Shown in pieces: positions 1 to 11,882 of a DNA stretch of 11,882 nucleotides. This DNA comes from Kiritimatiellales bacterium. GTDB taxonomy: Bacteria > Verrucomicrobiota > Kiritimatiellia > Kiritimatiellales > Pontiellaceae. The translations under genes and the position numbers were made by a program. Positions within the stretch are counted from its first letter, which is position 1. Every line of letters starts with the position of its first letter. The stretch is taken from positions 1 through 11,882 of the forward strand of contig WFRA01000310.1 of assembly GCA_015486775.1 (NCBI GenBank). The letters are read 5' to 3'. Below the pieces are notes generated by a model. It was not told the origin of the DNA. It worked only from the letters and a program-made list of their open reading frames with translations, and did not search any database.

Positions 1-1035
1 CGTGAGGGAGGTGGCAAAAATCTTGAGCCCAACAAGCAGCAGGACAAGCAGCAGCCCGGGCTGCACGGAGGTGAGCATGTCGGTGATAAAGGAGTAGCCG
101 ACTCCGTAGAGGTAGTAGTGCCCCGTGATCCGGTAGAGCAGGTAGCCGGTTGCTCCAAGCAGGAGCCCGCCGACGAGCGCCTTGATGTGGGAACTGGTGC
201 GGATGCGGTCGAAGAAATCCTCCATGCGGTAGAGGATCGAGATGAAGGCGATGGAACCGCCGGCGGCCATGATGCCGAGGATGAGGTAGAAGATAAATTC
301 AACCGGGGAAACCAGGTGGTATTCCGGCAGGATGAAGGCCGGCATGCTTCCGATGTAGATGCCGGCGATGTAGGTGGCGGTGGTGGCGGAGATAATCAGC
401 GGCATGAAGGTCATCAGGCTGTATTCGGGGAGGATTAGCTCAATGGCAAACGCTACGCCACCGATGGGCGCGTTGAAGGTGGCGGCAATGCCGCCGGCCA
501 CGCCACAACCGACCAGCAGGATCACATCGCGTGGTCGGAGCCCCAGCAGCTGGCCGAGGGTGGAGCCGAAGCTGGAGCCGATCTGCACAATGGGGCCTTC
601 GCGGCCAACCGATCCGCCCGATCCGATGCAGATCGCCGAGGCGAGGGATTTTACCACCGCCACCACCGGGCGGATTTTGCCCCGGTTTTCGATTACGGCG
701 TTCATGACCTCGGGAACGCCGTGCCCTTTGGCCTCGGGGGCGAACGTCTGGGTGAGCCAGTTGACGATCAGCATTCCAAGGGCTGGAACCAGGATGACCG
801 CCGCCCCCCAGGAGGAGGTGAACGGCCCGGCGGAGTCGAAGTGGAAGTCGAGCGTTCCCATGAAGAAGAGGTTGTGGAAAAAGGCGATCATGTAGCGGAA
901 GGCAATGGCACCGTAGCCGGCGACTAGCCCCACCGCAATGGCGAGAAGGGAGGTGTACATCGAGGAGTTGACCGTTTGCCGCTCGAAATTGCGTGCCCTC
1001 GCCCGGAACCGCCCCACCTTGATCTTTCGTTTCAT
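1..1035 (-). CDS. ClC-family chloride channel/transporter, partial (C-terminus beyond window)
   Basis: This membrane protein of the voltage-gated chloride channel (ClC) family moves chloride, or exchanges chloride for protons, across the inner membrane. 345 residues are visible and the frame stays open through the left edge, so the second half and any C-terminal CBS domains are missing. The family signatures are clear: GHGVPE at residues 104-109, GSGGSVGREGP at 138-148 with gating Glu146, and FNAPIGG at 187-193 followed by FAIE at 196-199. The residue aligning with the internal proton glutamate of E. coli ClC (E203) is Leu200. The pore serine of the GSGIP motif is His here, as in the GHGVPE subgroup. 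The start ATG is at 1035, with AGGAG nine bases upstream. The gene lies 222 bp downstream of the co-oriented permease, separated by a large hairpin, so co-transcription is uncertain. Family assignment is firm; channel versus exchanger is not. Confidence 0.95.
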   Translation of the reverse strand, partial: MKRKIKVGRFRARARNFERQTVNSSMYTSLLAIAVGLVAGYGAIAFRYMIAFFHNLFFMGTLDFHFDSAGPFTSSWGAAVILVPALGMLIVNWLTQTFAPEAKGHGVPEVMNAVIENRGKIRPVVAVVKSLASAICIGSGGSVGREGPIVQIGSSFGSTLGQLLGLRPRDVILLVGCGVAGGIAATFNAPIGGVAFAIELILPEYSLMTFMPLIISATTATYIAGIYIGSMPAFILPEYHLVSPVEFIFYLILGIMAAGGSIAFISILYRMEDFFDRIRTSSHIKALVGGLLLGATGYLLYRITGHYYLYGVGYSFITDMLTSVQPGLLLVLLLVGLKIFATSLT

Positions 1036-1187
1036 GGAAATCCGCTCCTGTGCTTTCGCTTTGGTTGTCAGGCGCGGGAGTTAAGCCCATGCATTTTGGT
1101 TTTTCCAGATAATAGATTGAAAAATAAGAGTGAACCGAGAAACGGAGGGCGTTTCACCAAAAAACACCATCGTGAACACCAATCTTT

Positions 1188-1248
1188 TCGTAGAAGCGAC
1201 ATCCTCGTCGCTTGCCCACGCAAAAATGCGACGAGGACGTCGCTACGA
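1188..1248. repeat. Long imperfect inverted repeat (REP/MITE-like hairpin)
   Basis: Left arm 1188-1211 and right arm 1228-1248 are reverse complements, apart from a 3-base insertion (AAG, 1194-1196) and one A-C mismatch. This gives a stem of about 20 pairs built on the core TCCTCGTCGC/GCGACGAGGA. The 16-base loop contains a smaller stem, TTGC (1212-1215) with GCAA (1220-1223). It begins about 10 bp past the stop codon of the permease at 1258. There is no T-tract on either side, so it is not a canonical intrinsic terminator. It may be a dispersed palindromic repeat or a transcript-stabilising or attenuating hairpin between the permease and ClC genes. The structure is certain; the function is inferred. 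Confidence 0.75.
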
Positions 1249-1257
1249 CACTTTATT

Positions 1258-2562
1258 CTAACGCTGCAACCATTCGTGGAACAGAATGATGGCGATGCTG
1301 GCCACCACGCAGGTGGCGAGGGTGGCGAGCGTTCCTGATTTGAACCAGGTGACAAAGGTGATGGGTTCGTCGGTCTCGGCGCTTTTGCTGACGACGACCA
1401 CGTTGGCGGTGGAGCCGATGGGCGATCCATTGCCACCAAAGCCGACGCCGAGCGCCAGTGCCCACCAGAGCAGGTTGGTCTCGATGCCGTCGGCACCCAT
1501 TTGGTGGATGACGGGAATCATGGCCATGGTGAAGGGAATGTTGTCGATCAGGGCTGATGCAAAGGCGGAGACCCACAGGATGATGAGCGCCGTCACGACG
1601 ATGCTGTGCCCGGAGTGGTGGACGATGGCGCGGGTGAGGTGGTCGATGATTCCGGAATGTTCCAATGCCCCGACCAAGACAAAAAGCGCGATGAAGAAGG
1701 CGAGCACGCTCCACTCCACTTTTTGCATGATGGGCTGGGGGTCTTTTTTGATGGTGACCAGCAAGAGGGTGAGCGTGGCGCCGATGATGGCGACCATGGA
1801 GGGTTCGAGATGGATGTAGTGGTGGCAGAAAAAGAGAATCACCACCAGCACCAGCACGCTCATGGTTTTATAGATGTCGCCCTTGTTGGTGATGGATTTG
1901 GAGGCATCCCAGTTCATGAGGTCGTCGATGTGGTCGGGTTTCTTGGCGAGCTCTTTGCGGTAGACCAGTTTGAGGACGAGCAGGGTGGCGGCCCAGGCCA
2001 CAATAACGACGGGGGCAACGTGCGTGATGAAGTCGTTGAATGAAAAGTGGGCCGCGCTACCAATCATCACGTTGGGCGGGTCGCCGACGAGGGTGGCCAC
2101 GCCGCCGGTATCGGAGAGGAGGGCTTCGGCCATTAGCAGGGGCGTGGCGCTGATCCGGGTAATTTTTGCAATCAGAATGGTGACCGGTGCGATGATAACG
2201 ACGGTGGTGACGTTGTCGAGGATGAAGGAGACCACCGTGGTTACGGTGCCGAGCGCGACGAGTAGAAGCCACGGGTTCCCCTTGGCTTTCTGCGCGGATT
2301 TGATGGCGAGATATTCGAGGAACCCGGTGTGTTCGAGCACGGCAACGATAATCATCATGCCAGCCAGCAGGGTCAGGGTGTGGAAGTCGATGGCCTCGAA
2401 GGCGAGCTCGGGGGAGTAGAATCCAAAAAAGTGACCCAGCAGGACAACGAGCACAGCGCCCCCCATAGCTATAACGGTTCGGTGGACGCGCTCGCTGATG
2501 ATCAGGGCAAAGGTGATGACGAATACGCTGGCCGTAATGATTTGGGGAAGAAGAGGATCCAT
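1258..2562 (-). CDS. ArsB/NhaD-superfamily permease (probable Na+/H+ antiporter), copy 1
   Basis: This integral membrane transporter of 434 residues belongs to the ion transporter superfamily that includes NhaD Na+/H+ antiporters, ArsB arsenite permeases and the P protein. The two inverted-repeat halves are visible: DNVTTV (residues 116-121) and TLVGDPPNVMIG (157-168) in the first, DNIPFTM (340-346) and GGNGSPIGSTANVV (376-389) in the second. Hydrophobic segments run throughout, with a polar loop around 203-232. I chose ATG 2562 because GGAG lies 9 bases upstream and the protein becomes hydrophobic immediately. An in-frame ATG at 2622 would overlap the upstream gene by 41 bp and add a non-family N-terminus. 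The gene starts 19 bp after the EIIA-CBS gene, so the two are very probably co-transcribed. The absence of ars genes and the presence of ClC and hyf genes favour cation/proton exchange over arsenite export. The substrate is inferred, not shown. Confidence 0.9.
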   Translation of the reverse strand: MDPLLPQIITASVFVITFALIISERVHRTVIAMGGAVLVVLLGHFFGFYSPELAFEAIDFHTLTLLAGMMIIVAVLEHTGFLEYLAIKSAQKAKGNPWLLLVALGTVTTVVSFILDNVTTVVIIAPVTILIAKITRISATPLLMAEALLSDTGGVATLVGDPPNVMIGSAAHFSFNDFITHVAPVVIVAWAATLLVLKLVYRKELAKKPDHIDDLMNWDASKSITNKGDIYKTMSVLVLVVILFFCHHYIHLEPSMVAIIGATLTLLLVTIKKDPQPIMQKVEWSVLAFFIALFVLVGALEHSGIIDHLTRAIVHHSGHSIVVTALIILWVSAFASALIDNIPFTMAMIPVIHQMGADGIETNLLWWALALGVGFGGNGSPIGSTANVVVVSKSAETDEPITFVTWFKSGTLATLATCVVASIAIILFHEWLQR

Positions 2563-2581
2563 GGTGCGAGTCTCCGAGGTG

Positions 2582-3502
2582 CTACATATTAAAAATCTTG
2601 TCGGCCACGGTAATGGAGTCAATCACGCCAAGCAACCGACCTTCGCGGCAGACGTAGAGCAGGGGATATTTTTTTACCGAGAGCAGGAAGACGATCTCCA
2701 GCAGCGATCCGTTTTCGTCGATGGTCGATTTGCAATCGTTCATCAGGTCGCCCACGGTCAGGTTGGTCTGTTTCGCAAAATGGTCGTGGAATGGAGAGAA
2801 GTCGGTGATGTTCGGAACGCTGTGAAGTTTCTTGATGTAATCGGGCAGTTCGCATTCGAAGAGGGCGGCACTATTGAGTTCACCGACAATGCGTTCTCCA
2901 TCGCCCATGACCGGAGCCGCTGCGGCTCGCAGGCGATGCATGAGCTGGGTGGCCTCCTCGATGGGCTGTTGCGGATGAAGTAGGATGCGTGCTGGGCGCA
3001 TCAGGTCGAGCGCGATGATGGGTGCGTCGATTTCAAACTGCGCCCCATCCATGATTCGCTGGATGGCCTCGGGCGAGGAGGCTTCCAGTAGCTGCGTGCG
3101 AATCCCGGGGCTCATTAGGAAGCGGGTGCAGGCCGAGTTAATCTTCACACCCAGCTCCGCACGGGAGGCGGGGAGCAGGATCAGGAAGGCAAACTGGGTC
3201 GGTTGGCCATCGAGTGCACCAAGGTCTGTACCATTTTTAATAGTTGCAAAGGCCATTAGAGGGCGCTCAAGACCCGCGATCCGTGCGTGGGGCAGGGCGA
3301 TACCTTCACCGAGCGCGGTGGTGCCAAGTTGTTCGCGTTTTTCGATCTCTTCAAAAAAGGTGCTTCGGAGTTCCGCCGGAAGCTCGGCGGCGAAGGGGTT
3401 TTTTTCGAGGGCACCGATCAGTTGGTGGATTATTTCTTGTTTGTTCGTTCCCGACTCGATTTGGAGAATCGATTCTTTTTTTAGTATACTTGAAAGTTTC
3501 AT
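2582..3502 (-). CDS. PTS EIIA-Ntr-like domain fused to a CBS pair, copy 1
   Basis: This soluble 306-residue protein probably has a sensory or regulatory role. Residues 1-150 form an EIIA domain of the fructose/PtsN (nitrogen) type, with the phosphorylatable histidine at 72 in GIALPHARI. Residues about 166-217 and 250-303 are two CBS repeats forming a Bateman module, which in other proteins binds adenine nucleotides or similar ligands. Between the CBS repeats sits a 31-residue linker (218-248) that is conserved in the paralogue at 4379. No EIIB or EIIC sugar transport component is nearby, so sugar uptake is unlikely. The more plausible role is control of the adjacent permease by phosphorylation and energy state, an inference from the domain pairing and 19-bp spacing. 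The start at 3502 is supported by GGAGG eight bases upstream. Confidence 0.9.
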   Translation of the reverse strand: MKLSSILKKESILQIESGTNKQEIIHQLIGALEKNPFAAELPAELRSTFFEEIEKREQLGTTALGEGIALPHARIAGLERPLMAFATIKNGTDLGALDGQPTQFAFLILLPASRAELGVKINSACTRFLMSPGIRTQLLEASSPEAIQRIMDGAQFEIDAPIIALDLMRPARILLHPQQPIEEATQLMHRLRAAAAPVMGDGERIVGELNSAALFECELPDYIKKLHSVPNITDFSPFHDHFAKQTNLTVGDLMNDCKSTIDENGSLLEIVFLLSVKKYPLLYVCREGRLLGVIDSITVADKIFNM

Positions 3503-3542
3503 GATGGCTCCCTCCGCTTTACTCGAAAAATAAACAAATGAA

Positions 3543-3578
3543 ACTATAGAAGCGGCGGGATCCTTGGCGAGAATTCTC
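3543..3578 (-). promoter_or_regulatory. Candidate promoter for the leftward EIIA-CBS/permease genes
   Basis: On the minus strand, TATAGT (3548-3543) matches the -10 consensus at five of six positions. TCGCCA, 17 bp upstream (3571-3566), is a weak -35 match. Transcription would start around 3535, giving a leader of roughly 33 bases before the ATG at 3502. The -35 partly overlaps the palindrome at 3569-3578, so a bound regulator there could block or recruit polymerase. This is pattern matching only. Confidence 0.3.
3569..3578. promoter_or_regulatory. Perfect 10-bp palindrome, candidate operator
   Basis: GAGAATTCTC is a perfect dyad located in the divergent region between the two EIIA genes, immediately upstream of the leftward candidate promoter. 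Further short dyads follow: AAAAG/CTTTT (3588-3592 with 3595-3599) and ATTTTA/TAAAAT (3605-3610 with 3622-3627). They make the 3565-3630 stretch symmetry-rich. A 10-bp palindrome can occur by chance, so the operator role is a guess based on location. Confidence 0.3.
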
Positions 3579-3597
3579 TGCTAGACAAAAAGGACTT

Positions 3598-3627
3598 TTG
3601 CTGGATTTTATGTCGATAGTTTAAAAT
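3598..3627 (+). promoter_or_regulatory. Candidate promoter for the rightward HTH-EIIA/permease/hyf operon
   Basis: TTGCTG (3598-3603) matches the -35 consensus at four of six positions. TAAAAT (3622-3627), 18 bp downstream, matches the -10 at five of six. Transcription would begin near 3634, leaving a leader of about 48 bases before the ATG at 3682, with the ATGTCCA repeats inside the initially transcribed region. Assigned from sequence pattern and position only. Confidence 0.35.
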
Positions 3628-3649
3628 AAATAGGGAAAAATATTGACTA

Positions 3650-3666
3650 ATGTCCAGAAATGTCCA
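3650..3666 (+). repeat. Two ATGTCCA direct repeats, 10-bp period, candidate operator
   Basis: ATGTCCA occurs at 3650-3656 and again at 3660-3666, exactly 10 bp apart, so both copies face the same side of the helix. They lie just downstream of the candidate rightward promoter and 15 bp before the ATG of the HTH-EIIA gene. Excisionase/MerR-like winged HTH proteins such as Xis and BldC often bind head-to-tail direct repeats, so this is a plausible autoregulatory site. If translation instead began at TTG 3643, the repeats would be coding. Confidence 0.4.
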
Positions 3667-3681
3667 AAGGTGCGCGGCGTT

Positions 3682-4350
3682 ATGGAAATCGGAGTAAAAC
3701 AAGCGGCGGAATTGTTGAATGTTTCGGACAAGACCATTTATCGGTGGGTGTCCGGGGCGCAGATCCCTTTTTACCGCGTGGGGGCGCAGTACCGTTTTTC
3801 GAAGCAAGAACTGCTTTTGTGGGCAGCGGCGGACGGAACGACCCAAGCTGGGCTAGCGGGTGAAGGCGGGGAACCCCTTGTTCTATCGCTGGAGGAGAGC
3901 CTGCGGACGGGCGGCATCTTCTACCGCGTTGGCGGTAGCGATGTGCGCGAGGTGCTTGCGCAGATGCTTGGACTCATGCGGTTGCCTCCGGGCGCAGATG
4001 CAGAGCGTATCCTCAATCGGCTCTATGAGCGCGAAAGGATTACGACCACCGGGGTGGGCGACGGAATCGCTTTTCCCCATTGCCGCGAACTGGCCCTCCC
4101 GGGGCTTCTACTCCCGATGGTCGCGCTCGGTTTTCTGGAGCAGTCCGTTAATTTTGAATCCATCGACAAGAAGCCGGTAGAGATTGTTTTTGTCCTGCTG
4201 AGTCCATCGACCCGCGCGAGCATCCGCATGATGTCGCGTCTGGCCTACGCTGTCCGGCAACCTTCTGTTGATCGGTTACTTCGAAACAGCGGATCGCGCG
4301 AACAGCTTTTGGAGACGCTTGCGGCGGTGGATCGGGAGCTGGACGGATAG
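3682..4350 (+). CDS. Excisionase-type HTH domain fused to PTS EIIA-like domain (probable regulator)
   Basis: This probable DNA-binding regulator has 222 residues from ATG 3682. Residues 1-50 are an excisionase/MerR-type helix-turn-helix: GVKQAAELLNVSDKTIYRW at 4-22, then the wing YRVGAQYRFSKQEL at 31-44. Residues about 66-220 resemble EIIA of the PtsN/fructose type, with the candidate phospho-histidine at 133 in GIAFPHCRE. The architecture suggests transcription control by phosphorylation of the EIIA part, by analogy with PTS-regulated transcription factors; this is inference. ATG 3682 has a modest AAAGG at 3666-3670 and begins right at the HTH. An alternative in-frame TTG at 3643 has AGGGA six bases upstream and would add 13 residues. 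It is the first gene of the rightward operon, 28 bp before the EIIA-CBS gene, and divergent from the paralogous leftward cassette, so it may control both. Confidence 0.87.
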   Translation: MEIGVKQAAELLNVSDKTIYRWVSGAQIPFYRVGAQYRFSKQELLLWAAADGTTQAGLAGEGGEPLVLSLEESLRTGGIFYRVGGSDVREVLAQMLGLMRLPPGADAERILNRLYERERITTTGVGDGIAFPHCRELALPGLLLPMVALGFLEQSVNFESIDKKPVEIVFVLLSPSTRASIRMMSRLAYAVRQPSVDRLLRNSGSREQLLETLAAVDRELDG

Positions 4351-4378
4351 TTTTCAACCCTTGGAAGAAGGAGTTACC

Positions 4379-5296
4379 ATGAATATTCTAAATTATGCTT
4401 GCCGAGGTATCTCTTGGCAGCCCCGCCTGCGGGCGGAAAACCGCGATGACGTGCTTAAAAGCATGCTCGACACGCTCTGCACGGAGGAGTTTCTTTCGGT
4501 TAATGATGGTTTGTCCAAAGAGGGCATCCTTCACGCCCTCATCGAGCGCGAGGCGCTACGTACCACGGCGGTGGGGAACGGGATTGCCTTCCCCCATGCT
4601 CGCCTCGAAAACTTGACCCGCTCCCTTTTCGCCATCGCCACACTCGAGGAGCCCGTGCAGTTCGGGGCGGAGACGGTGAATATTGTCTGCCTGATTCTCG
4701 TGCCGGTTTCTGACCCCTCCATCTCGCTGAAGCTGATGGCGCAATTTTCGCGCGTGCTGATGGACGAACCCACCCGCGCGCAGGTGCTCGAAGCCCGCGA
4801 CTCCAAGACACTCGAAGCGCTTTTTACCCATGAAGACGCCAGCATCGACAAGCCGCTGGTTGCCCGCGACATCATGCGCCTTCCGCGCTGGAGCGTGAAC
4901 GAAGAGACCCCGCTTTCGGAATGTGCCAAGATGATGAGTAACTACCAGCTCCGTGCCATTCCCGTGCTCGACGACCAGAAGCACATCGTCGGGGAGATCA
5001 CCACCGACCTGCTCTTCCGCTATGGGCTGCCCGACTTTTTCGCGCGGCTCAAGAGCGTCTCCTTCGTGGCGGAGTTTGATCCCTTCGAAAAATATTTCGA
5101 GGACGAACGCGCAACGCAGGCCTCCTCCATCATGTCGCACGCCCCGCGCATCGTGGAGCCGGAACACACCGTCATGGAAATCGTATTCGACCTCGCCGTC
5201 ACTAGCTTCAACAAGCTCTACGTCGTCGACCACACGCAACGATGGATCGGAACCGTGACCAAGGGCACGATTCTCGACAACGTTATCAACGTCTAA
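4379..5296 (+). CDS. PTS EIIA-Ntr-like domain fused to a CBS pair, copy 2
   Basis: This 305-residue soluble protein is a full-length paralogue of the leftward EIIA-CBS gene. The EIIA domain spans about residues 1-150, with the candidate phospho-histidine at 73 in GIAFPHARL. CBS repeats lie at about 163-215 and 248-303. The inter-CBS linker keeps the pattern LPD(F/Y), SV, F.PF and a further F seen in the other copy. The start ATG 4379 has AAGGAG six bases upstream. The same frame is open back to an ATG at 4268, but that would overlap the preceding gene by 83 bp with no supporting homology. It lies 17 bp before the second permease gene, repeating the EIIA-CBS-then-permease order of the left arm. 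This points to a dedicated pair in which this protein tunes the permease or the downstream complex. The ligand of the CBS pair is unknown. Confidence 0.9.
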   Translation: MNILNYACRGISWQPRLRAENRDDVLKSMLDTLCTEEFLSVNDGLSKEGILHALIEREALRTTAVGNGIAFPHARLENLTRSLFAIATLEEPVQFGAETVNIVCLILVPVSDPSISLKLMAQFSRVLMDEPTRAQVLEARDSKTLEALFTHEDASIDKPLVARDIMRLPRWSVNEETPLSECAKMMSNYQLRAIPVLDDQKHIVGEITTDLLFRYGLPDFFARLKSVSFVAEFDPFEKYFEDERATQASSIMSHAPRIVEPEHTVMEIVFDLAVTSFNKLYVVDHTQRWIGTVTKGTILDNVINV

Positions 5297-5313
5297 CCCT
5301 CCGGGAGTCCGCC

Positions 5314-6615
5314 ATGCTTTTCCCCATTGCTGTTTTTTTGGTTGTCTATCTTTTCATCGCCACCGAGTGGGTCGACAAGACCATCGCCGCCGTCATTGGC
5401 GGCGGGCTGGTAGTCGGCCTGCACATCATCGGCTACGAGGAGGCGTTGCACGCTGTCGACCTCAACGTGCTCTTCCTGCTCATCGGCATGATGGTGGTGG
5501 TCGGCACGCTCTCTGAGACCGGGGTCTTCGAATGGCTGGCCATCAAGCTGGCCCGGGCGGCAAAAGGCAACGGACTGCGCATTGCCGTGCTATTCATGGT
5601 TCTCACGGCGGTGCTATCCGCCTTCCTCGACAACGTCACCACCGTCATTCTGATGGCACCGATCACTATTCTTTTGACGCAGCTCCTTGAAATCCCCACC
5701 GCGCCGCTGCTTATCATGGAAGCCATCTTTTCAAACATTGGAGGAACCGCCACGCTCGTCGGCGACCCGCCCAACATCCTGATCGGTTCGCAGGCGCACC
5801 TCTCCTTCAACGACTTCATCCTCAATCTAACTCCTCCTGTTTTAATTAGCATGGCCGTACTGATCGGCATCATGGTGCTGCTTTTCGGCAAGCGGATGAA
5901 CACCACGCCCGAAACCCGTAAACGCATCGAACGCTCGCGCCCCGAAAAAGCAATCATCCAACCCTTGGAACTCAGAAAGGCACTGGTCGTATTTGGCTTT
6001 ATCCTCGCCGGATTCTTTCTGGGGCGGGTACTAAACATTGAGCCGGGCATCATTGCGCTCGTCGGTGGCATGGTCATGGTGGCCGTCTGCAAAAAGAGCC
6101 TGCACGGGGCGCTGGCCAGCGTCGAGTGGGACACCATCCTCTTCTTCGCCGGGCTCTTCATGATGGTCGCCGCGCTGGAAGTCCACGGCGTGTTTACCGC
6201 GCTCGGCCATGCCATCTTGAATGCCTGTCACGGAAACCTGATGTGGACCGCCTTCGCCATACTTTGGGTCAGTGCGCTCGCCTCCACCATCGTCAACAAC
6301 ATTCCGCTCGTAATGGCCATGATCCCGCTCGTGCAGGGCATTGTTCCGGTCTTCGCCAAGCAGATGGGGCTGGAGGTGCCCGCCGAGATCCACGCCCAGA
6401 TCGCCGCGCCGCTACTCTGGTCGCTCGCGCTCGGTGCTTGCCTCGGCGGCAATGGAACGCTCGTCGGTGCCTCCGCCAACGTGGTGATTGCCCAGGTGGC
6501 CAACCGCAACGGCTGTCCGATCACTTTCGGTTCCTTCACCAAATATGGATTTCCCTTCATGATTGTTAGCCTGCTCGTCTCCAGCGCCTATATCTACCTG
6601 CGCTATTTTATGTAA
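5314..6615 (+). CDS. ArsB/NhaD-superfamily permease (probable Na+/H+ antiporter), copy 2
   Basis: This 433-residue membrane transporter is paralogous to the leftward permease. Signature segments are DNVTTV (106-111), TLVGDPPNILIG (147-158), NNIPLVM (328-334) and LGGNGTLVGASANVV (377-391). At the second-half helix-break motif it has Asn328 where copy 1 has Asp340. The start ATG 5314 has GGGAG six bases upstream; the longer frame from 5242 runs inside the preceding gene and is not credible. The stop codon TAA (6613-6615) shares its last A with the ATG of hyfB, so the two are translationally coupled. That makes a functional link with the Hyf-type complex likely, for example converting between proton and sodium gradients. 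The transported ion is inferred from family and context. Confidence 0.9.
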   Translation: MLFPIAVFLVVYLFIATEWVDKTIAAVIGGGLVVGLHIIGYEEALHAVDLNVLFLLIGMMVVVGTLSETGVFEWLAIKLARAAKGNGLRIAVLFMVLTAVLSAFLDNVTTVILMAPITILLTQLLEIPTAPLLIMEAIFSNIGGTATLVGDPPNILIGSQAHLSFNDFILNLTPPVLISMAVLIGIMVLLFGKRMNTTPETRKRIERSRPEKAIIQPLELRKALVVFGFILAGFFLGRVLNIEPGIIALVGGMVMVAVCKKSLHGALASVEWDTILFFAGLFMMVAALEVHGVFTALGHAILNACHGNLMWTAFAILWVSALASTIVNNIPLVMAMIPLVQGIVPVFAKQMGLEVPAEIHAQIAAPLLWSLALGACLGGNGTLVGASANVVIAQVANRNGCPITFGSFTKYGFPFMIVSLLVSSAYIYLRYFM

Positions 6616-8609
6616 TGCAGGCGAACCTCCCCATTCCTTGGCTTCTGCTGGCAGCCCTGCTCCTCTATCCAATCACTGGAATCGCGGGGTTGCTAGCAAA
6701 GCGAAAGTCCAACTGGGGACGCTGGCTGTTTCCGGCGGGGGCGATCGGCGCGGCAGTGCTGGGCATGGTTCCCGTTTGCCGGGTGCTTGCAACGGGAGTG
6801 CCGATTGATCTCCAGCTCCCGTGGACGCTTCCCGTGGGAAGTTTCCATTTAGGACTCGATCCGCTTTCGGCCTGGTTTGCCATTCCGGTTTTGCTCGTTT
6901 CCGCGCTGAGTGCCCTCTATGGAACCGGCTATATGCGCTCCAGCGAGGGACGCAGCGGGATCGGGCTTCATCGGCTCTGTTTCCAATTGCTGGCCGGGGG
7001 CATGTTGCTGGTGCTGTTGGCTCGCGATGGTTTCCTGTTTTTGATGGCGTGGGAAATCATGTCGATGGCGGCCTTTTTTCTGGTGGTGTTCGACCACGAG
7101 GAGGACTCCGTTCGTAAAGCCGGATGGATCTACCTCGCCGCCACCCATCTGGGAACCGCCTTCCTTTTTGCTCTCTTTATTTTGATGGCAGTGACCACGG
7201 GATCAACCGATCTTTCGCCCGCACAGTTTGCCGCGGCTCCCTTTGCCGGCATCGCCTTTATCTTGGCCATCATTGGATTTGGATCAAAGGCGGGATTTTT
7301 TGGACTGCATGTCTGGCTGCCCGAGGCACACCCCGCCGCACCGTCGCATGTCTCCGGCCTGATGAGCGGCGTGATGATTAAAACGGGAATCTACGGAATC
7401 CTGCGTATCCTCATGCTCTACACCGATTGGCAGGCGTGGTGGGGCTGGCTCCTGCTGGGCATCGGAATCGTATCGGGATTGGGCGGGGTTTTGTTTGCCC
7501 TGCTCCAACACGATCTGAAACGGATATTGGCGTACCACAGCGTCGAGAATATCGGAATTATTGCGCTGGGCATGGGGGTCGGAGTTCTCGGATCAACGGA
7601 ACAACTGCCGCTCGTCGCCCTACTTGGATTTTCTGGCGCCTTGTTGCATGTACTCAATCATGCGCTCTTTAAAACCGCACTTTTTATGGGAGCGGGATCC
7701 GTGGTTCATGCCTGCGGAACACGGCAGATCGAGCAGATGGGCGGACTGGCCAAAAAGATGCCCTTCACCGCAGCGCTCTCCACCGTGGCGGCCATCGCCA
7801 TCTGCGGATTGCCCCCGCTCAACGGCTTTGCCAGCGAATTTTTGATCTACTCCGCCGCCGGGCAGGGATTGCTTCATGGGGAAACACTCACGCCCCTTCT
7901 TTTCGCAGTACTCTCCATTGTGGCCTTGGCGGCAATTGGAGGATTGGCCTGCTTCTGTTTTGCAAAAGTAATTGGAATCGTCTTTCTGGGCGAACCCCGT
8001 AGTACGCAAGCCGCCCAAGCGCACGAGGTGGAACCCATCATGATTTCGCCCCTCTTCCTGATCGTGGCCGCCTGTATCGGGTTGGGGCTATTTTCCTTCC
8101 TACTTGTTCCAATCCTTGGAAATATAGCGGCCACATTGACCCCAGGAAGGATTTCTGAACCCTCGTTTACTTTAATCCCCTATTTGGTACCCATCGGTGT
8201 GGTCGGAATCGGGTTGTGGCTTCTTCTGGGTGCAACCGTTCTCTTGCGGCGCAGATTTCTCCGGGGAAAAATAAAATCGAGTGCGCCCACTTGGGACTGC
8301 GGATATTCCCAACCTTCCGCTCGGATGCAATATACCGGAAGCTCCTTTGTTCAGCCCTTGCAATCCACCTTTGAGCCGCTGCTGAAAACAACGATCGAAG
8401 GCCAGCCGCCCCAAGGTATTTTCCCCGAACCGACCGAATTGGAAACCGAGACCCCCGATCCGGTGATGGCCCGAGGCTATGAACCGCTTTTCCGTCGCGC
8501 CGCCGATCTATTTGGTCGCTTCCGGGCCATTCAAAATGGTCGGGTCCAGCTCTATGTCGCCTACATCGCCGTGGTGCTTCTCGCCGTTCTTTTATGGAGT
8601 GTCCGATGA
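6615..8609 (+). CDS. hyfB: Hydrogenase-4 component B-like proton-translocating membrane subunit
   Basis: This 664-residue NuoL/M/N-type antiporter-like subunit of a membrane-bound hydrogenase or related complex is thought to form an ion channel driven by electron transfer. Residues about 125-460 carry the proton-conducting transporter domain. Likely key residues are Glu147 in MAWEIMS, Lys225 in GSKAGFFGLHVWLPEAHP, Lys256 in MIKTGIYG, Lys353 in NHALFKTALF and Lys451 in CFAKVIGIVFLG. The broken-helix motif LKRILAYHSVENIG is at 301-314. After about residue 555 comes the HyfB-typical tail, starting PTWDCGY (558-564) with ARMQYTGSSF shortly after, and a final TM helix. Length and tail match HyfB/HycC better than NuoL. 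It begins in a 1-bp overlap with the permease gene and ends in an ATGA overlap with hyfC. Confidence 0.93.
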   Translation: MQANLPIPWLLLAALLLYPITGIAGLLAKRKSNWGRWLFPAGAIGAAVLGMVPVCRVLATGVPIDLQLPWTLPVGSFHLGLDPLSAWFAIPVLLVSALSALYGTGYMRSSEGRSGIGLHRLCFQLLAGGMLLVLLARDGFLFLMAWEIMSMAAFFLVVFDHEEDSVRKAGWIYLAATHLGTAFLFALFILMAVTTGSTDLSPAQFAAAPFAGIAFILAIIGFGSKAGFFGLHVWLPEAHPAAPSHVSGLMSGVMIKTGIYGILRILMLYTDWQAWWGWLLLGIGIVSGLGGVLFALLQHDLKRILAYHSVENIGIIALGMGVGVLGSTEQLPLVALLGFSGALLHVLNHALFKTALFMGAGSVVHACGTRQIEQMGGLAKKMPFTAALSTVAAIAICGLPPLNGFASEFLIYSAAGQGLLHGETLTPLLFAVLSIVALAAIGGLACFCFAKVIGIVFLGEPRSTQAAQAHEVEPIMISPLFLIVAACIGLGLFSFLLVPILGNIAATLTPGRISEPSFTLIPYLVPIGVVGIGLWLLLGATVLLRRRFLRGKIKSSAPTWDCGYSQPSARMQYTGSSFVQPLQSTFEPLLKTTIEGQPPQGIFPEPTELETETPDPVMARGYEPLFRRAADLFGRFRAIQNGRVQLYVAYIAVVLLAVLLWSVR

Positions 8610-9499
8610 ACGTTGCCGTGCTCCATCTTCTAGCGGCTCTTTTGCTGGCACCGCTTTTTCCCGGCGTGATTAATCGCGTAAAGGCGCGGTTTGCCGGGCG
8701 GCAGGGCGCTCCGCTTTTCCAGCTCTACTTCGATCTGGCCAAACTGCTGAAAAAGGGTGCGGTTTTTAGCACCACCTCCACTTGGTTGTTTCGCGCCGGA
8801 TCGGCTGGGGTTTTGGCGACCTCTTTGGCAGCACTGGTGTTTGTTCCCGCTTGGGGTTGTCCGTCACTCATTCATTTTCAGGGCGACTTTATCCTTTTCG
8901 CCTACTTGCTCGGGCTGGGACGATTTTTGACGATGCTCGCGGCGCTGGACACCGGCTCGGCCTTTGAAGGAATGGGTGCCAGTCGCGAAGCCTTTTTCTC
9001 AGCGCTGGCGGAACCCGCCCTGCTTCTGGGATTGGCGGTACTGGCGGGCTTCTCGCACTCGCTTTCGTTGCAGGGCATCTATCTTTCAATCCCCGGAGTT
9101 CCGCTTCCCGCGCTGTTTTTTCTGCTGGTCGCTTTCGGAATTATTTTTCTCGCAGAAAATGCCCGCATTCCGGTGGATGATCCCAACACGCATCTGGAAC
9201 TGACCATGATCCACGAGGTAATGGTACTCGACCACAGCGGCCCCGATCTGGCGTTGATCGAATATGCCGGGGCGCTTCGTCTCTGGGCGACCGGCCTGCT
9301 GGTGGTCGGCCTGCTTCCGATCCGAACGGAGTTGCCGCTGCTCGATTTGGCGGATGCCATCTTTTTGCTGTTCGCTTGGGCGGTGGTGGTTGGCGTAGTG
9401 GAAAGTAGCATGGCTCGCCTGCGGATAAACCGCGTTCCTCTGCTCTTGGGCGTGGCGTTTGTCCTGTCGGTTTTAAGCCTTTTTTGGAGGGTGAAATAA
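8606..9499 (+). CDS. hyfC: Hydrogenase-4 component C-like membrane subunit (NuoH homologue)
   Basis: This 297-residue membrane anchor is homologous to NuoH/HycD and connects the soluble redox module to the antiporter-like subunits. Conserved segments are GRQGAPLFQLYFDLAKLLKK (31-50), the region 115-140 with DTGSAFEGMG and SREAFF, and the acidic cytoplasmic loop at 183-204 with ENARIPVDDPNTHLEL followed by MIHE. That loop sits where the quinone-cavity loop of complex I lies. ATG 8606 was chosen over the in-frame ATG 8594 because GGAG lies six bases upstream and it forms a 4-bp ATGA overlap with hyfB, the same junction type seen at hyfE-hyfF. It is followed directly by hyfE with no intergenic base. 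Confidence 0.94.
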   Translation: MNVAVLHLLAALLLAPLFPGVINRVKARFAGRQGAPLFQLYFDLAKLLKKGAVFSTTSTWLFRAGSAGVLATSLAALVFVPAWGCPSLIHFQGDFILFAYLLGLGRFLTMLAALDTGSAFEGMGASREAFFSALAEPALLLGLAVLAGFSHSLSLQGIYLSIPGVPLPALFFLLVAFGIIFLAENARIPVDDPNTHLELTMIHEVMVLDHSGPDLALIEYAGALRLWATGLLVVGLLPIRTELPLLDLADAIFLLFAWAVVVGVVESSMARLRINRVPLLLGVAFVLSVLSLFWRVK

Positions 9500-10141
9500 A
9501 TGATCACCCAACTCCTCACCGCCGCGATTCTATTGCTGACCCTCCAGATGCTCGGCTCCGCCCGCCTCGGACGGCTCATTCACGCCGTCGCCCTGCAAGC
9601 CGGTGCCATGATTTTGCTGGGACTCTTCTCGGTTCCCGAATGGCCCAATTGGCATGAAGGACTCTTGATTGCGGTGACAGCGGGGTTGAAGTGCGCGGTC
9701 TTTCCTTTTCTCCTTTTCCGGGCGTTGCGCGAAACGGTGGTCCATCGCGAGGTCGAACCGCTGATCGGCTATGCACGCTCCCTCTTTATTGGGCTCATCT
9801 TGCTGGGTTCCGGCCTTTGGGTGGCTAACCGCTTGCCGCTTCCCCCCGGTGGCATCGAACCCTTTCAACTGGCCATTGCGCTCACGACGATGGGCGCGGG
9901 ATTTGTGCTGATTGTCGGGCGGGTCAAGGCCATCACGCAGACGATCGGCTATCTCGTGCTTGAAAATGGCATCGGCATGCTGGGCTTTGCGCTGGCGGCG
10001 GGCAGTCCGCTCTTTATCGAGTTGGGCGTCCTGCTCGATATCTTTGTTGGGGTCTTTGTGATGGGCATCATGATGCTGGATATCAACCGTGAGTTCGACC
10101 ACATGGACACGGATAAGCTTTCCGAATTGAGGGATGTATGA
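9500..10141 (+). CDS. hyfE: Hydrogenase-4 component E-like membrane subunit (NuoK-like)
   Basis: This small integral membrane subunit of 213 residues is close to the length of E. coli HyfE. Its C-terminal half is NuoK-like: QTIGYLVLENGIGMLGF at 147-163 and LFIELGVLLDIFVGVFVMGI at 171-190, which place Glu155 and Glu174 in membrane helices. These probably correspond to the two buried glutamates of NuoK used in proton transfer. The N-terminal half adds helices around 5-45 and 55-75 and a conserved-looking charged loop near 75-92. The ATG follows the hyfC stop immediately, with GGAGG about nine bases upstream. The stop overlaps the hyfF start by 4 bp (ATGA). It likely bridges HyfC and the large antiporter-like subunits. 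Confidence 0.93.
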   Translation: MITQLLTAAILLLTLQMLGSARLGRLIHAVALQAGAMILLGLFSVPEWPNWHEGLLIAVTAGLKCAVFPFLLFRALRETVVHREVEPLIGYARSLFIGLILLGSGLWVANRLPLPPGGIEPFQLAIALTTMGAGFVLIVGRVKAITQTIGYLVLENGIGMLGFALAAGSPLFIELGVLLDIFVGVFVMGIMMLDINREFDHMDTDKLSELRDV

Positions 10142-11595
10142 ATAGCGAACATCTACTCTTGATCGAACCGCTACTGGGCGGGCTACTTTGCGGCTTTTTG
10201 CCGAAGGTACGTTTGCGCCGGATGGTGCTGGTGCTTTTTGCACTTGGCCACTTTGCGCTGACCTTGGTTTGTGTCGCAAAAGGCTCCGATGCCCACCCCG
10301 GAAATTTGATCGGACTTGATGCGCTTTCACTCCTTTTCCTTCTGATCGTCAGCGGGCTTTTCCTTCCCGCGTCCATCGCCACCGTCCGCTACCTTTCACA
10401 GCAGGAGGAGAAAGTTTCCTCTCGAACCCTCTTTTCGCGCGAGTCCATTTTTACTGGATCGCTCCTACTTTTTCTCTTTGCCATGACGCTCGCAATCCTC
10501 AGCCGCCACATCGGCCTTTTTTGGATGGCGGTCGAAGGCACGACGCTGGCGAGTGCACCGCTAATTTGCTACCACCGCTCGCCCCAAACCCTGGAAGCCG
10601 CGTGGAAATATTTGTTGATCTGCTCGGTGGGCATTGCCATGGCGCTGGTGGGCAACATTGCATTGATGGTCGCCGCCGCTTTCGATCCGGCACTGGAAGG
10701 CCTATCGCTCGGGTTTACAAATCTTCTCCAACATGCGGGGCAGCTCCAGCCGGTTTGGGTAAAAATTTCCTTCGTCTTTTTCCTCGTGGGCTACGGAACC
10801 AAGATGGGGTTGGTTCCCATGCACACCTGGCTACCCGATGCCCATAGCGAGGCACCATCGCCCGTTTCCGCCCTGCTTTCAGGTGCCTTGCTCAACTGCG
10901 CCTTTCTCGGAATCATTCGCGGAAATATGTTGCTGGGCGCGGTTGGACAGGAACGCTTTGGACAGGAGCTACTCCTCTTTTTCGGACTCTCCTCCATGCT
11001 GGTGGCAGGTATGTTTATTATCCGCCAAACGGGCTACAAACGCATGCTGGCCTATTCCAGCGTCGAGCACATGGGCATCCTTGCCGTCGCGCTCGCCTGC
11101 GGCGCCTCCTTCGGTGGCATGTACCACGCCCTCAACCATTCCCTCGCCAAAGGCGCACTCTTCCTTACCGCCGGAGTCATTCTCAGCCGCTACCGCACCA
11201 AAAACATCGACGAGGTAACGGGAATTCTAAAGACCCGTCCAATCATTGGAACCCTGTGGATACTCGGCTTCCTCGCTATCTGTGGCGTGCCGCCCTTCTC
11301 CGTATTTGGTAGTGAATTTATGATCATGACCGGCTTAGCAACCAGTGGAAACTGGGTAGCGCTCGGCCTCATGTTGCTGGCGCTGGGATTGGTCTTTGTG
11401 GGCATGGCCGCCCTTATGCCACGCATGGCCTACGGAACCCCACCCGCAACCCTACCGGAAGCCGCCCCCGCCAAACCGGTGGACTGGATTCTTCCCGCTC
11501 TCCTGCTCGGCATGAGCCTGCTCTTGGGTCTCTGGATTCCGGAACCCATTCACCACCTCATTCAATCCGCCGCACTTCAAATAGGAAATGGATGA
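10138..11595 (+). CDS. hyfF: Hydrogenase-4 component F-like proton-translocating membrane subunit
   Basis: This 485-residue second NuoL/M/N-type antiporter-like subunit is shorter than HyfB and lacks its C-terminal tail. Visible channel residues are Glu133 in AVEGTTLASAPL (131-142), Lys222 in GYGTKMGLVPMHTWLPDAHS, and Lys338 in NHSLAKGALF. At the position where HyfB has Lys256 it has Asn253 in GALLNCAFLG, which I recall as usual for HyfF. The motif GYKRMLAYSSVEHMGI at 299-314 marks the broken helix. It starts in a 4-bp ATGA overlap with hyfE and ends one base before the hyfG start. With HyfB it gives the complex two antiporter-like channels, and no HyfD-type third one is encoded between hyfC and hyfF. 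Confidence 0.94.
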   Translation: MNSEHLLLIEPLLGGLLCGFLPKVRLRRMVLVLFALGHFALTLVCVAKGSDAHPGNLIGLDALSLLFLLIVSGLFLPASIATVRYLSQQEEKVSSRTLFSRESIFTGSLLLFLFAMTLAILSRHIGLFWMAVEGTTLASAPLICYHRSPQTLEAAWKYLLICSVGIAMALVGNIALMVAAAFDPALEGLSLGFTNLLQHAGQLQPVWVKISFVFFLVGYGTKMGLVPMHTWLPDAHSEAPSPVSALLSGALLNCAFLGIIRGNMLLGAVGQERFGQELLLFFGLSSMLVAGMFIIRQTGYKRMLAYSSVEHMGILAVALACGASFGGMYHALNHSLAKGALFLTAGVILSRYRTKNIDEVTGILKTRPIIGTLWILGFLAICGVPPFSVFGSEFMIMTGLATSGNWVALGLMLLALGLVFVGMAALMPRMAYGTPPATLPEAAPAKPVDWILPALLLGMSLLLGLWIPEPIHHLIQSAALQIGNG

Positions 11596-11596
11596 T

Positions 11597-11882
11597 ATGA
11601 AAAGTTCCTTTTATGAAGTGTCCAATGCAACGGCATTCCCGTTGGCGGAGGTGCCGGTGCTCTCCTTTGACGATTGGAAAGAGGCAATTTGTTCCAAGGT
11701 TCGGAACGGAGCGCACCTCTCCGCCCTCACTCTTTTACCTAACCACCAACTCTGCGCTGTCCTCTCCGATCCAGCAAATCCCCGCCTGCTGATCGCCTCC
11801 ACAACGGTAGGCGAATCCTATCCCGCCCTCACCCCCGACTGCCCGCAAGCCCACCTCTTTGAGCGCGAAATTTTTGAACAGC
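11597..11882 (+). CDS. hyfG: Hydrogenase-4 component G-like large subunit, NuoC-like N-terminus, partial
   Basis: This is the 5' end of a gene, giving 95 residues before the right edge. The segment HLFEREIFEQ at 86-95 fits the NuoC (30-kDa complex I subunit) domain, which in HyfG/HycE-type proteins precedes the large catalytic (NuoD/NiFe hydrogenase) domain. The start ATG 11597 lies one base after the hyfF stop, with AGGA (11583-11586) ten bases upstream. An in-frame ATG at 11588 is too close to that ribosome binding site. The nickel-binding CxxC motifs, if present, would lie downstream and are not visible. So the reading could be the group 4 [NiFe]-hydrogenase large subunit or an Ehr-type homologue without a NiFe centre. 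A separate NuoC-type protein with the NuoD part encoded separately also cannot be excluded. Confidence 0.8.
   Translation, partial: MKSSFYEVSNATAFPLAEVPVLSFDDWKEAICSKVRNGAHLSALTLLPNHQLCAVLSDPANPRLLIASTTVGESYPALTPDCPQAHLFEREIFEQ

What the first reader, a model, noticed from the sequence alone, without database searches (positions are those of the whole stretch)
1258..6615. Mirror-image paralogous EIIA-CBS + permease cassettes around a shared control region
The leftward pair (EIIA-CBS 3502-2582, permease 2562-1258) and rightward pair (4379-5296, 5314-6615) have the same gene order, nearly the same lengths (306/434 and 305/433 residues), and share motifs including the inter-CBS linker. They flank an HTH-EIIA gene. 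Seen in sequence: order and homology. Inference: a duplicated 'sensor + ion permease' unit with two divergent outputs, one followed by ClC and the other by a Hyf-type complex. I know of no described system of this form.
Basis: partly seen in the sequence, partly recalled or inferred. Interest (0 to 1): 0.7.

Follow-up and report, generated by a model that had tools for sequence, protein, structure and literature searches.

The report
PTS-CBS switch proteins beside ion transporters
Two distantly related gene pairs, each a predicted switch protein followed by an ion transporter, sit back to back in a Pontiella-like bacterium, and because the same pairing is kept in many of its relatives it may be a built-in control for ion pumps.

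Summary
In detail: two divergent EIIA-CBS + permease cassettes lie at the stated coordinates around an HTH-EIIA gene. A recent local duplication is not supported. The left permease groups with permeases recorded from Desulfuromusa, Desulfobulbaceae and Patescibacteria, the right one with those of the window's class, Omnitrophota and Fusobacterium. An ancient duplication remains possible.

The larger finding is the pairing. In 193 genomes of the class, 66 of 77 EIIA-CBS genes are directly followed by a permease of this type. Ten of the other 11, all in one genus code, precede a ClC. Conversely, 66 of 68 high-scoring permeases follow an EIIA-CBS gene, though that profile was built mostly from paired permeases. 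The CBS part shifts place: EIIA-CBS | ClC, EIIA | ClC-CBS (KSB1), CBS | permease (Proteobacteria).

Best reading: EIIA-CBS is a dedicated switch subunit of its transporter, phosphorylated through EI/HPr (genes with both domains lie side by side in this genome) and gated by a CBS ligand. The nearest precedent is E. coli PtsN binding the antiporter YcgO. Binding, ligand and transported ion are untested.

The parts
1..1035 (-). ClC-type chloride channel/exchanger, cut by the contig end
   Evidence: ORF; Voltage_CLC 8.4e-61
1228..1243 (-). 16-bp repeat GCGACGTCCTCGTCGC, dispersed in the assembly; also the stem of a terminator-like hairpin between left permease and ClC
   Evidence: 13 exact copies in the assembly, 0 of the reversed control; terminator-like scan (6 found, 6.7 in shuffles)
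1258..2562 (-). left permease (permL), ArsB/NhaD-type, IT superfamily
   Evidence: CitMHS 1.2e-88, ArsB 4.4e-22
2582..3502 (-). left EIIA-CBS protein
   Evidence: PTS_EIIA_2 4.6e-24, CBS 2.9e-8; AlphaFold2 model pLDDT 87.7
3503..3681 (.). shared divergent control region
   Evidence: intergenic between divergent starts
3650..3666 (+). direct repeat ATGTCCA-GAA-ATGTCCA, candidate operator (weak)
   Evidence: 1 match, 0.04 expected, 9 of 200 shuffles had a match; chosen after seeing it; a shorter form matched only copies of this site and L085 among 203 loci
3682..4350 (+). HTH_17 + EIIA putative transcription regulator
   Evidence: HTH_17 5.9e-14, PTS_EIIA_2 1e-19; 35% and 38% identical to the HTH-EIIA beside HyfB genes in G021 and G005
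4379..5296 (+). right EIIA-CBS protein
   Evidence: PTS_EIIA_2 4.4e-23, CBS 4.5e-14
5314..6615 (+). right permease (permR), ArsB/NhaD-type
   Evidence: CitMHS 2e-88, ArsB 6.2e-21
6615..8609 (+). HyfB-like Mrp-type ion-translocating subunit
   Evidence: Proton_antipo_M 1.2e-48; NF005086 596.7 bits, cut-off 667
8606..9499 (+). NuoH/HyfC-like subunit
   Evidence: NADHdh 1.1e-27
9500..10141 (+). HyfE-like subunit
   Evidence: NF008556 1.3e-17, 64.4 bits against a cut-off of 136
10138..11595 (+). HyfF-like Mrp-type subunit
   Evidence: Proton_antipo_M 6.1e-53
11588..11882 (+). start of a NuoC/D-like subunit, cut by the contig end
   Evidence: 53% identical over 46 residues to the 510-aa NuoCD-like subunit of G021; no Pfam hit by itself

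Best explanation
Each cassette is a two-gene module: a cytosolic EIIA-CBS switch protein and the ion transporter it controls. Proposed action: PEP -> EI -> HPr -> histidine of the EIIA domain reports carbon/energy state; the CBS pair reports a nucleotide or ionic ligand; the CBS side docks on the transporter and the phosphorylation state decides whether transport is allowed, as unphosphorylated PtsN inhibits the E. coli antiporter YcgO. The HTH-EIIA protein applies the same signal to transcription from the divergent region. The two cassettes are two old lineages of the same module brought together in an ion-homeostasis island, not a recent local duplication. Shown: genes, domains, near-obligate pairing in the class, separate close relatives of the two permeases, genes with EI and HPr domains, retained histidine. 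Inferred: phosphorylation, docking, CBS ligand, direction of control, transported ion.
For: (1) Pairing: 66 of 77 EIIA-CBS genes in 193 class genomes have a same-strand permease directly downstream; of 68 permeases at E <= 1e-111, 66 follow an EIIA-CBS gene; of 40 weaker permeases, 0 do. Ten of the 11 others precede a ClC, all in genus code g12. (2) Outside the class: two Omnitrophota loci of one genome (L066, L179), one Planctomycetota (L071) and Fusobacterium vincentii (L168, two tandem permeases) keep a permease; Zixibacteria L068 has a Na/Ca exchanger instead. (3) Domain exchange: EIIA-CBS + ClC without CBS (L031, L069), EIIA alone + ClC-CBS in two KSB1 records (L073, L117), CBS pair alone + permease in three Proteobacteria (L170, L172, L173). 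(4) EIIA histidine in 104 of 104 rows with a letter there; 1 of 105 rows has a gap. (5) The window's genome has HPr-domain and EI-domain genes side by side on C402. (6) Model of the left protein: EIIANtr fold (3urr, 1a6j; TM by target 0.85-0.89) plus a part like the CBS pairs of AcuB and CBSX2. (7) In relatives the right pair sits in a run HTH-EIIA / Na+/H+ exchanger-CBS / CBS / EIIA-CBS / permease / SulP-STAS / Zn-ribbon-EIIA. (8) Precedent: PtsN-YcgO (PMC11808508, outline and abstract).
Against: No binding, phosphorylation or transport was tested. The ten ClC cases are one genus and the two KSB1 ClCs are 69% identical, so the partner-swap argument rests on few independent events; the Na/Ca exchanger case is single. 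One class EIIA-CBS (G182) and two of three Zixibacteria cases (L070, L077) have no transporter directly downstream. Five of 11 permease loci showed neither EIIA-CBS nor CBS partner by BLAST. Profile A4 was built mostly from paired permeases, which favours the 66-of-68 figure; both class searches scored only part of the candidates in many genomes (at most 12 and 9). Plain EIIA genes sit mostly beside HPr kinase or RapZ (12 and 4 of 29), so the association is not general to EIIA. Pfam finds only one CBS stretch in the left protein, so its ligand site may be degenerate.
Confidence: 0.55

Rival explanations
1. A recent local (mirror-image) duplication of one EIIA-CBS + permease unit. (An ancient duplication, before the two permease clades spread across phyla, is a different claim and is not excluded.)
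For: Same gene order, near-equal lengths, 30% and 38% identity; both EIIA-CBS proteins in one 63-row clade.
Against: Permease tree and AU test, p = 4e-67. Left permease is 59-64% identical to permeases named from Desulfuromusa, Desulfobulbaceae and Patescibacteria but 38% to its neighbour. No other of 193 class genomes scored above 298 bits with the left-type profile, against 493 for the window, while the right type is widespread.
Confidence: 0.03
2. EIIA-CBS is an operon-mate that regulates expression, mRNA or metabolism rather than the transporter protein; adjacency reflects co-expression only.
For: The HTH-EIIA neighbour suggests that EIIA domains are used in transcription control here.
Against: EIIA-CBS has no DNA-binding domain in Pfam. 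EIIA-CBS genes sit beside unrelated transporters (ArsB/NhaD-type, ClC, Na/Ca exchanger) and the CBS part is on the transporter in KSB1, which co-expression alone does not predict.
Confidence: 0.25
3. A sugar PTS: EIIA-CBS feeds phosphate to a sugar-specific EIIB/EIIC.
For: Best curated hits of the EIIA part include fructose IIA.
Against: No EIIB or EIIC among the ten Pfam-scanned proteins of the window or the five scanned of L052; the neighbours are ion transporters; no NCBIfam PTS cut-off is met.
Confidence: 0.04
4. About the substrate, and compatible with the best reading: the paired permeases carry an organic or inorganic anion (DASS-like), not Na+ or H+; control would then be carbon-source control of anion transport.
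For: CitMHS is the top Pfam model, and VcINDY is among PDB relatives.
Against: The best PDB relative of the left permease is an arsenical pump (10tp, E 1.5e-22); island neighbours include Na+/H+ exchangers and Mrp-type subunits. None of this fixes the substrate.
Confidence: 0.35

Closest known systems
E. coli PtsN (EIIANtr) - YcgO K+/H+ antiporter (PMC11808508)
   Same: An EIIANtr protein controls an ion antiporter by phosphorylation-dependent binding to its cytoplasmic part (abstract).
   Different: PtsN is one free regulator with other roles and no CBS (recalled); here the transporter has its own EIIA fused to a CBS pair, encoded next to it, and the transporter families differ.
CBS-regulated transporters (MgtE; osmoregulated ABC importers; ClC)
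   Same: A CBS pair gates or tunes transport (MgtE and a c-di-AMP-binding ABC importer in passages of PMC10710835; ClC-5 CBS domain among fold matches).
   Different: There the CBS pair is on the transporter or its ATPase; here it is on a separate soluble protein with an EIIA domain.
LacS-type EIIA-Glc domain fused to a sugar transporter
   Same: HPr-dependent phosphorylation of an EIIA-like domain tunes a secondary transporter (passage in PMC10710835).
   Different: EIIA-Glc type, sugar substrate, fused; no CBS is mentioned in the passage.
MamN / ArsB / NhaD (IT superfamily permeases)
   Same: Among the best curated hits of both permeases.
   Different: All scores far below the curated cut-offs; an EIIA-CBS partner was not found described in the searches listed under Tried and rejected.
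Hydrogenase-4 / energy-converting-hydrogenase-related (Ehr) complexes
   Same: HyfB, HyfC, HyfE and HyfF-like subunits in that order.
   Different: In relative G021 the large subunit lacks the two paired-cysteine nickel motifs (my reading of the sequence; the motif is recalled); the window's own large subunit is cut off.

Membership tests
EIIANtr / PTS EIIA (PF00359) | Pfam PTS_EIIA_2 above gathering score | tested here: met
   85.5 and 82.3 bits, cut-off 27
EIIANtr / PTS EIIA (PF00359) | phosphorylatable active-site histidine | tested here: met
   His in 104 of 104 rows with a letter at that column, one gap among 105 rows; that this is the phosphorylated residue is recalled
PtsN equivalog (TIGR01419) | curated equivalog score | tested here: not met
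   64.5 and 50.1 bits against 138.7
CBS (Bateman) protein | two CBS repeats | tested here: met
   R: 2 stretches in Pfam; L: only 1 stretch, but the L model resembles CBS pairs such as AcuB and CBSX2
CBS (Bateman) protein | binds an adenosine nucleotide or similar ligand | not testable with these tools
   needs a binding assay
ArsB arsenite pump | TIGR00935 curated score | tested here: not met
   112.8 and 100.7 bits against 415
NhaD Na+/H+ antiporter | TIGR00775 curated score | tested here: not met
   51.3 and 50.3 bits against 577.1
MamN magnetosome transporter | NF040989 curated score | tested here: not met
   228.8 and 180.2 bits against 500
IT superfamily (CitMHS, PF03600) | Pfam gathering score | tested here: met
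   297.8 and 297.1 bits against 31.9
Recently duplicated cassette | L and R permeases are each other's close kin | tested here: not met
   AU test p = 4e-67, 20 rows held together against 28
[NiFe] hydrogenase 4 | large subunit with two CxxC nickel motifs | tested here: inconclusive
   window's subunit cut at the contig end; G021 homologue lacks them by my reading
PTS phosphorelay | EI and HPr encoded in the same genome | tested here: met
   HPr domain C402:3816-4049 and EI N-terminal domain C402:4115-4486, same strand

The most novel reading that the evidence does not exclude
EIIA-CBS proteins are a cross-phylum class of dedicated, interchangeable switch subunits for ion transporters. The same EIIA + CBS + transporter set is kept together while the CBS part moves between regulator and transporter, and the transporter is swapped (ArsB/NhaD-type, ClC, Na/Ca exchanger). 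In Pontiella-like bacteria they form a PTS-controlled ion-homeostasis island that takes in a Na+/H+ exchanger, SulP and a Hyf/Ehr-type complex. (Probability set at 0.35 rather than my first 0.4, because on re-checking all ten class ClC cases fall in one genus code.)
Probability: 0.35. Interest if true: 0.8.

Novelty: new variant of a known kind. Interest (0 to 1): 0.6.

Why it matters
EIIANtr is known to act on an antiporter in E. coli (PMC11808508), but as one protein with many targets (recalled). Here the same domain is fused to a CBS pair and encoded one-to-one with its transporter in dozens of genomes. That gives clean pairs for testing how central metabolism gates ion transport, and it would turn proteins now annotated as 'PTS sugar transporter subunit IIA' (names) into likely ion-transport regulators.

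Tried and rejected
Recent local duplication: rejected by the permease trees and AU test. Sugar PTS: no EIIB/EIIC among the scanned neighbours. ClC as part of the left operon: not supported (222-bp gap with a dispersed repeat). Operator repeat at 3650-3666: weak, and not found at relatives' HTH-EIIA loci. L/R residue differences: one search gave four positions with a polar or charged residue that differ consistently between the clades (L27H/R21D, L28R/R22K, L276Q/R264H, L397T/R399N) against 20 shared polar ones; I could not interpret them. The first genome-contig scan with the single left protein found no relative; the second, with A2, returned mostly plain EIIA genes. Rfam at gathering threshold: no hit in the window. 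Equal contig lengths suggest that left and right EIIA-CBS types share a contig in eight database cases, but equal lengths can be coincidence (12175 also appears for P0140 from other sources), so I do not count them.

Literature searches run: (nine; two were about the host group and one about Ehr complexes). Searches returned nothing; the others listed 11 to 20 papers each, in several cases only the top of a longer list, and no title or abstract shown describes an EIIA-CBS/transporter pair. Only open-licence PMC papers are held, so absence from print is not shown. Papers: PMC11808508 outline and abstract; PMC13104625, PMC10880615 and PMC10710835 passages only; all others search listing only.
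Full report
What is there. The window is a whole 11.9-kb contig (C310) of a 2.5-Mb, 72%-complete assembly. The five genes of the finding are present at the stated places, with Pfam support. Right-hand genes are tightly packed: HTH-EIIA ends 4350, EIIA-CBS 4379-5296, permease 5314-6615, HyfB begins at 6615.

Homology. The EIIA-CBS proteins share 30% identity and the permeases 38%. The EIIA histidine is kept in 104 of 104 aligned rows with a letter there. The AlphaFold2 model of the left protein (pLDDT 87.7, pTM 0.76) matches EIIANtr structures and CBS-pair structures.

Not a recent duplication. I built short-search trees of 91 permeases and 105 EIIA-CBS proteins and a careful 48-row permease tree. 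The left permease falls in a 27-row clade with permeases named from Desulfuromusa, Desulfobulbaceae, Patescibacteria and others (names; most rows have none). The right permease falls in an 18-row clade with class, Omnitrophota and Fusobacterium rows. Holding the left permease and its 7 nearest database relatives (of unknown host) with 12 right-type permeases costs 237 log units (AU p = 4e-67); the group was chosen. Those two clades are each other's nearest kin here, with only three more distant rows outside, so an old duplication is not excluded. In the EIIA-CBS tree the L and R types sit in one 63-row clade with several others; L043_E groups with L (94, no bootstrap) although its permease groups with R. 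I read this as partner exchange, tentatively. With the left-type profile the best of the other 192 class genomes scored 298 bits against 493 for the window, yet database homologues exist (60 proteins, the window's own and distant ones included).

Pairing. Among loci fetched by EIIA-CBS similarity, 55 of 61 ORFs with both parts had the permease directly downstream (L065 repeats L048, so 54 of 60). The class-wide test: I took the 77 rows at E <= 1.6e-42, which cover the CBS part, in 68 of 193 genomes; three of them (G013, G037, G196) lack the first 45-81 residues. One search listed 108 permeases in 84 genomes. In one search, 66 of 77 have a same-strand permease immediately downstream, over 17 family codes by my reading of the table. 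Of the other 11, ten precede a ClC: G051 and nine more by BLAST, all genus code g12; G078 appears to be the same record as L069 (contig length and place). One, G182, has no transporter seen. Of 68 permeases at E <= 1e-111, 66 follow an EIIA-CBS gene; the exceptions are the second of two tandem permeases (G038) and one 319 bases from a contig end (G184). Of 40 weaker permeases none does. A4 was made mostly from paired permeases, and both searches scored only part of the candidates in many genomes. Gap figures are between profile matches; by an automatic start choice, 36 of 60 gene gaps lie between 5 and 24 bp.

Control. For 72 EIIA-only genes, mostly from Proteobacteria and so not matched to the class, 29 had a same-strand gene called downstream: 12 HPr kinase, 4 RapZ, 1 HPr, 2 ClC, 1 Mrp-type, 1 Na+/H+ exchanger, 1 TrkH and others. 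The caller takes the longest ORF and misses some same-strand genes: it gave 53 same-strand in the 60-gene EIIA-CBS set. Within these limits the transporter association is much stronger for EIIA-CBS.

Domain exchange. EIIA-CBS precedes a ClC without CBS (L031, L069). In two KSB1 records an EIIA-length ORF precedes a ClC with CBS (L073, L117; ClCs 69% identical); Pfam confirmed the L073 EIIA and both ClC-CBS proteins, the L117 EIIA rests on BLAST. In three Proteobacteria a CBS pair without EIIA precedes the permease (L170, L172, L173). In Zixibacteria L068 an EIIA-CBS frame abuts a Na/Ca exchanger gene; in L070 such a gene lies about 1 kb away beyond an opposite-strand ORF, and L077 has none. 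Of the eleven permease loci, three have EIIA-CBS (two are L066 and L067 again), three the CBS pair, and five neither by BLAST. The same parts recombining is the main reason I favour a physical complex; the independent events are few.

Island. In relatives the right pair lies in HTH-EIIA / Na+/H+ exchanger-CBS / CBS / EIIA-CBS / permease / SulP-STAS / Zn-ribbon-EIIA (L052). All seven were detected in L044, L046, L047, L052, L054, L057 and L062, with parts in others whose flanks are shorter or that differ. In G021 and G005 the SulP slot is taken by HTH-EIIA + HyfB genes, and the G021 run also ends in a Zn-ribbon-EIIA gene. The window resembles this second form, with the left cassette where the exchanger arm would be. 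The G021 large subunit scores best as NuoD, below cut-off, and lacks the paired cysteines expected of a nickel site (sequence; motif recalled), so the complex may be Ehr-like; the window's own copy is cut.

Mechanism. HPr-domain and EI-domain genes are adjacent in the window's genome. With the PtsN-YcgO precedent (PMC11808508, abstract), the best model is phosphorylation-dependent control of the transporter by its EIIA-CBS partner, tuned by a CBS ligand, with HTH-EIIA acting on transcription. Binding, ligand, ion and sign are inference.

Verdict. Real and conserved, not a recent duplication, and not seen described in the listings of nine searches of open-licence papers (calls named under Tried and rejected).

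Noticed in passing
window 1036-1257: A 16-bp repeat GCGACGTCCTCGTCGC occurs 13 times in the assembly (0 for the reversed control), on three contigs as close inverted pairs: a REP-like dispersed element.
   Followed up: partly
L051 (3960-5987, 1878-3920, 1-1818) and L053 (4905-6938, 2891-4969): Three and two tandem HyfB-like subunits follow an HTH-EIIA gene in relatives; the window has one.
   Followed up: no
L063:13686-14528 and L052:12597-13439: A Zn-ribbon + EIIA protein ends both island forms, after the NuoB-like subunit or after SulP.
   Followed up: partly
L116:3309-6775: In a Pararoseomonas record an EIIA-only gene directly precedes an Mrp-type antiporter subunit (MnhB/MbhD/MbhE domains).
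   Followed up: no
L170, L172, L173: In three Proteobacteria a stand-alone CBS pair, without EIIA, precedes an ArsB/NhaD-type permease.
   Followed up: partly
L168:5983-9728: Fusobacterium vincentii has one EIIA-CBS gene followed by two tandem permeases; the 2.1-Mb record is labelled a plasmid and has one annotated feature in the collection.
   Followed up: no
L032-L042 and L159-L167 (L162 without permease): A second, more distant EIIA-CBS + permease family (about 19-30% identical to the window's proteins) coexists with the first in several Pontiella-like genomes.
   Followed up: partly
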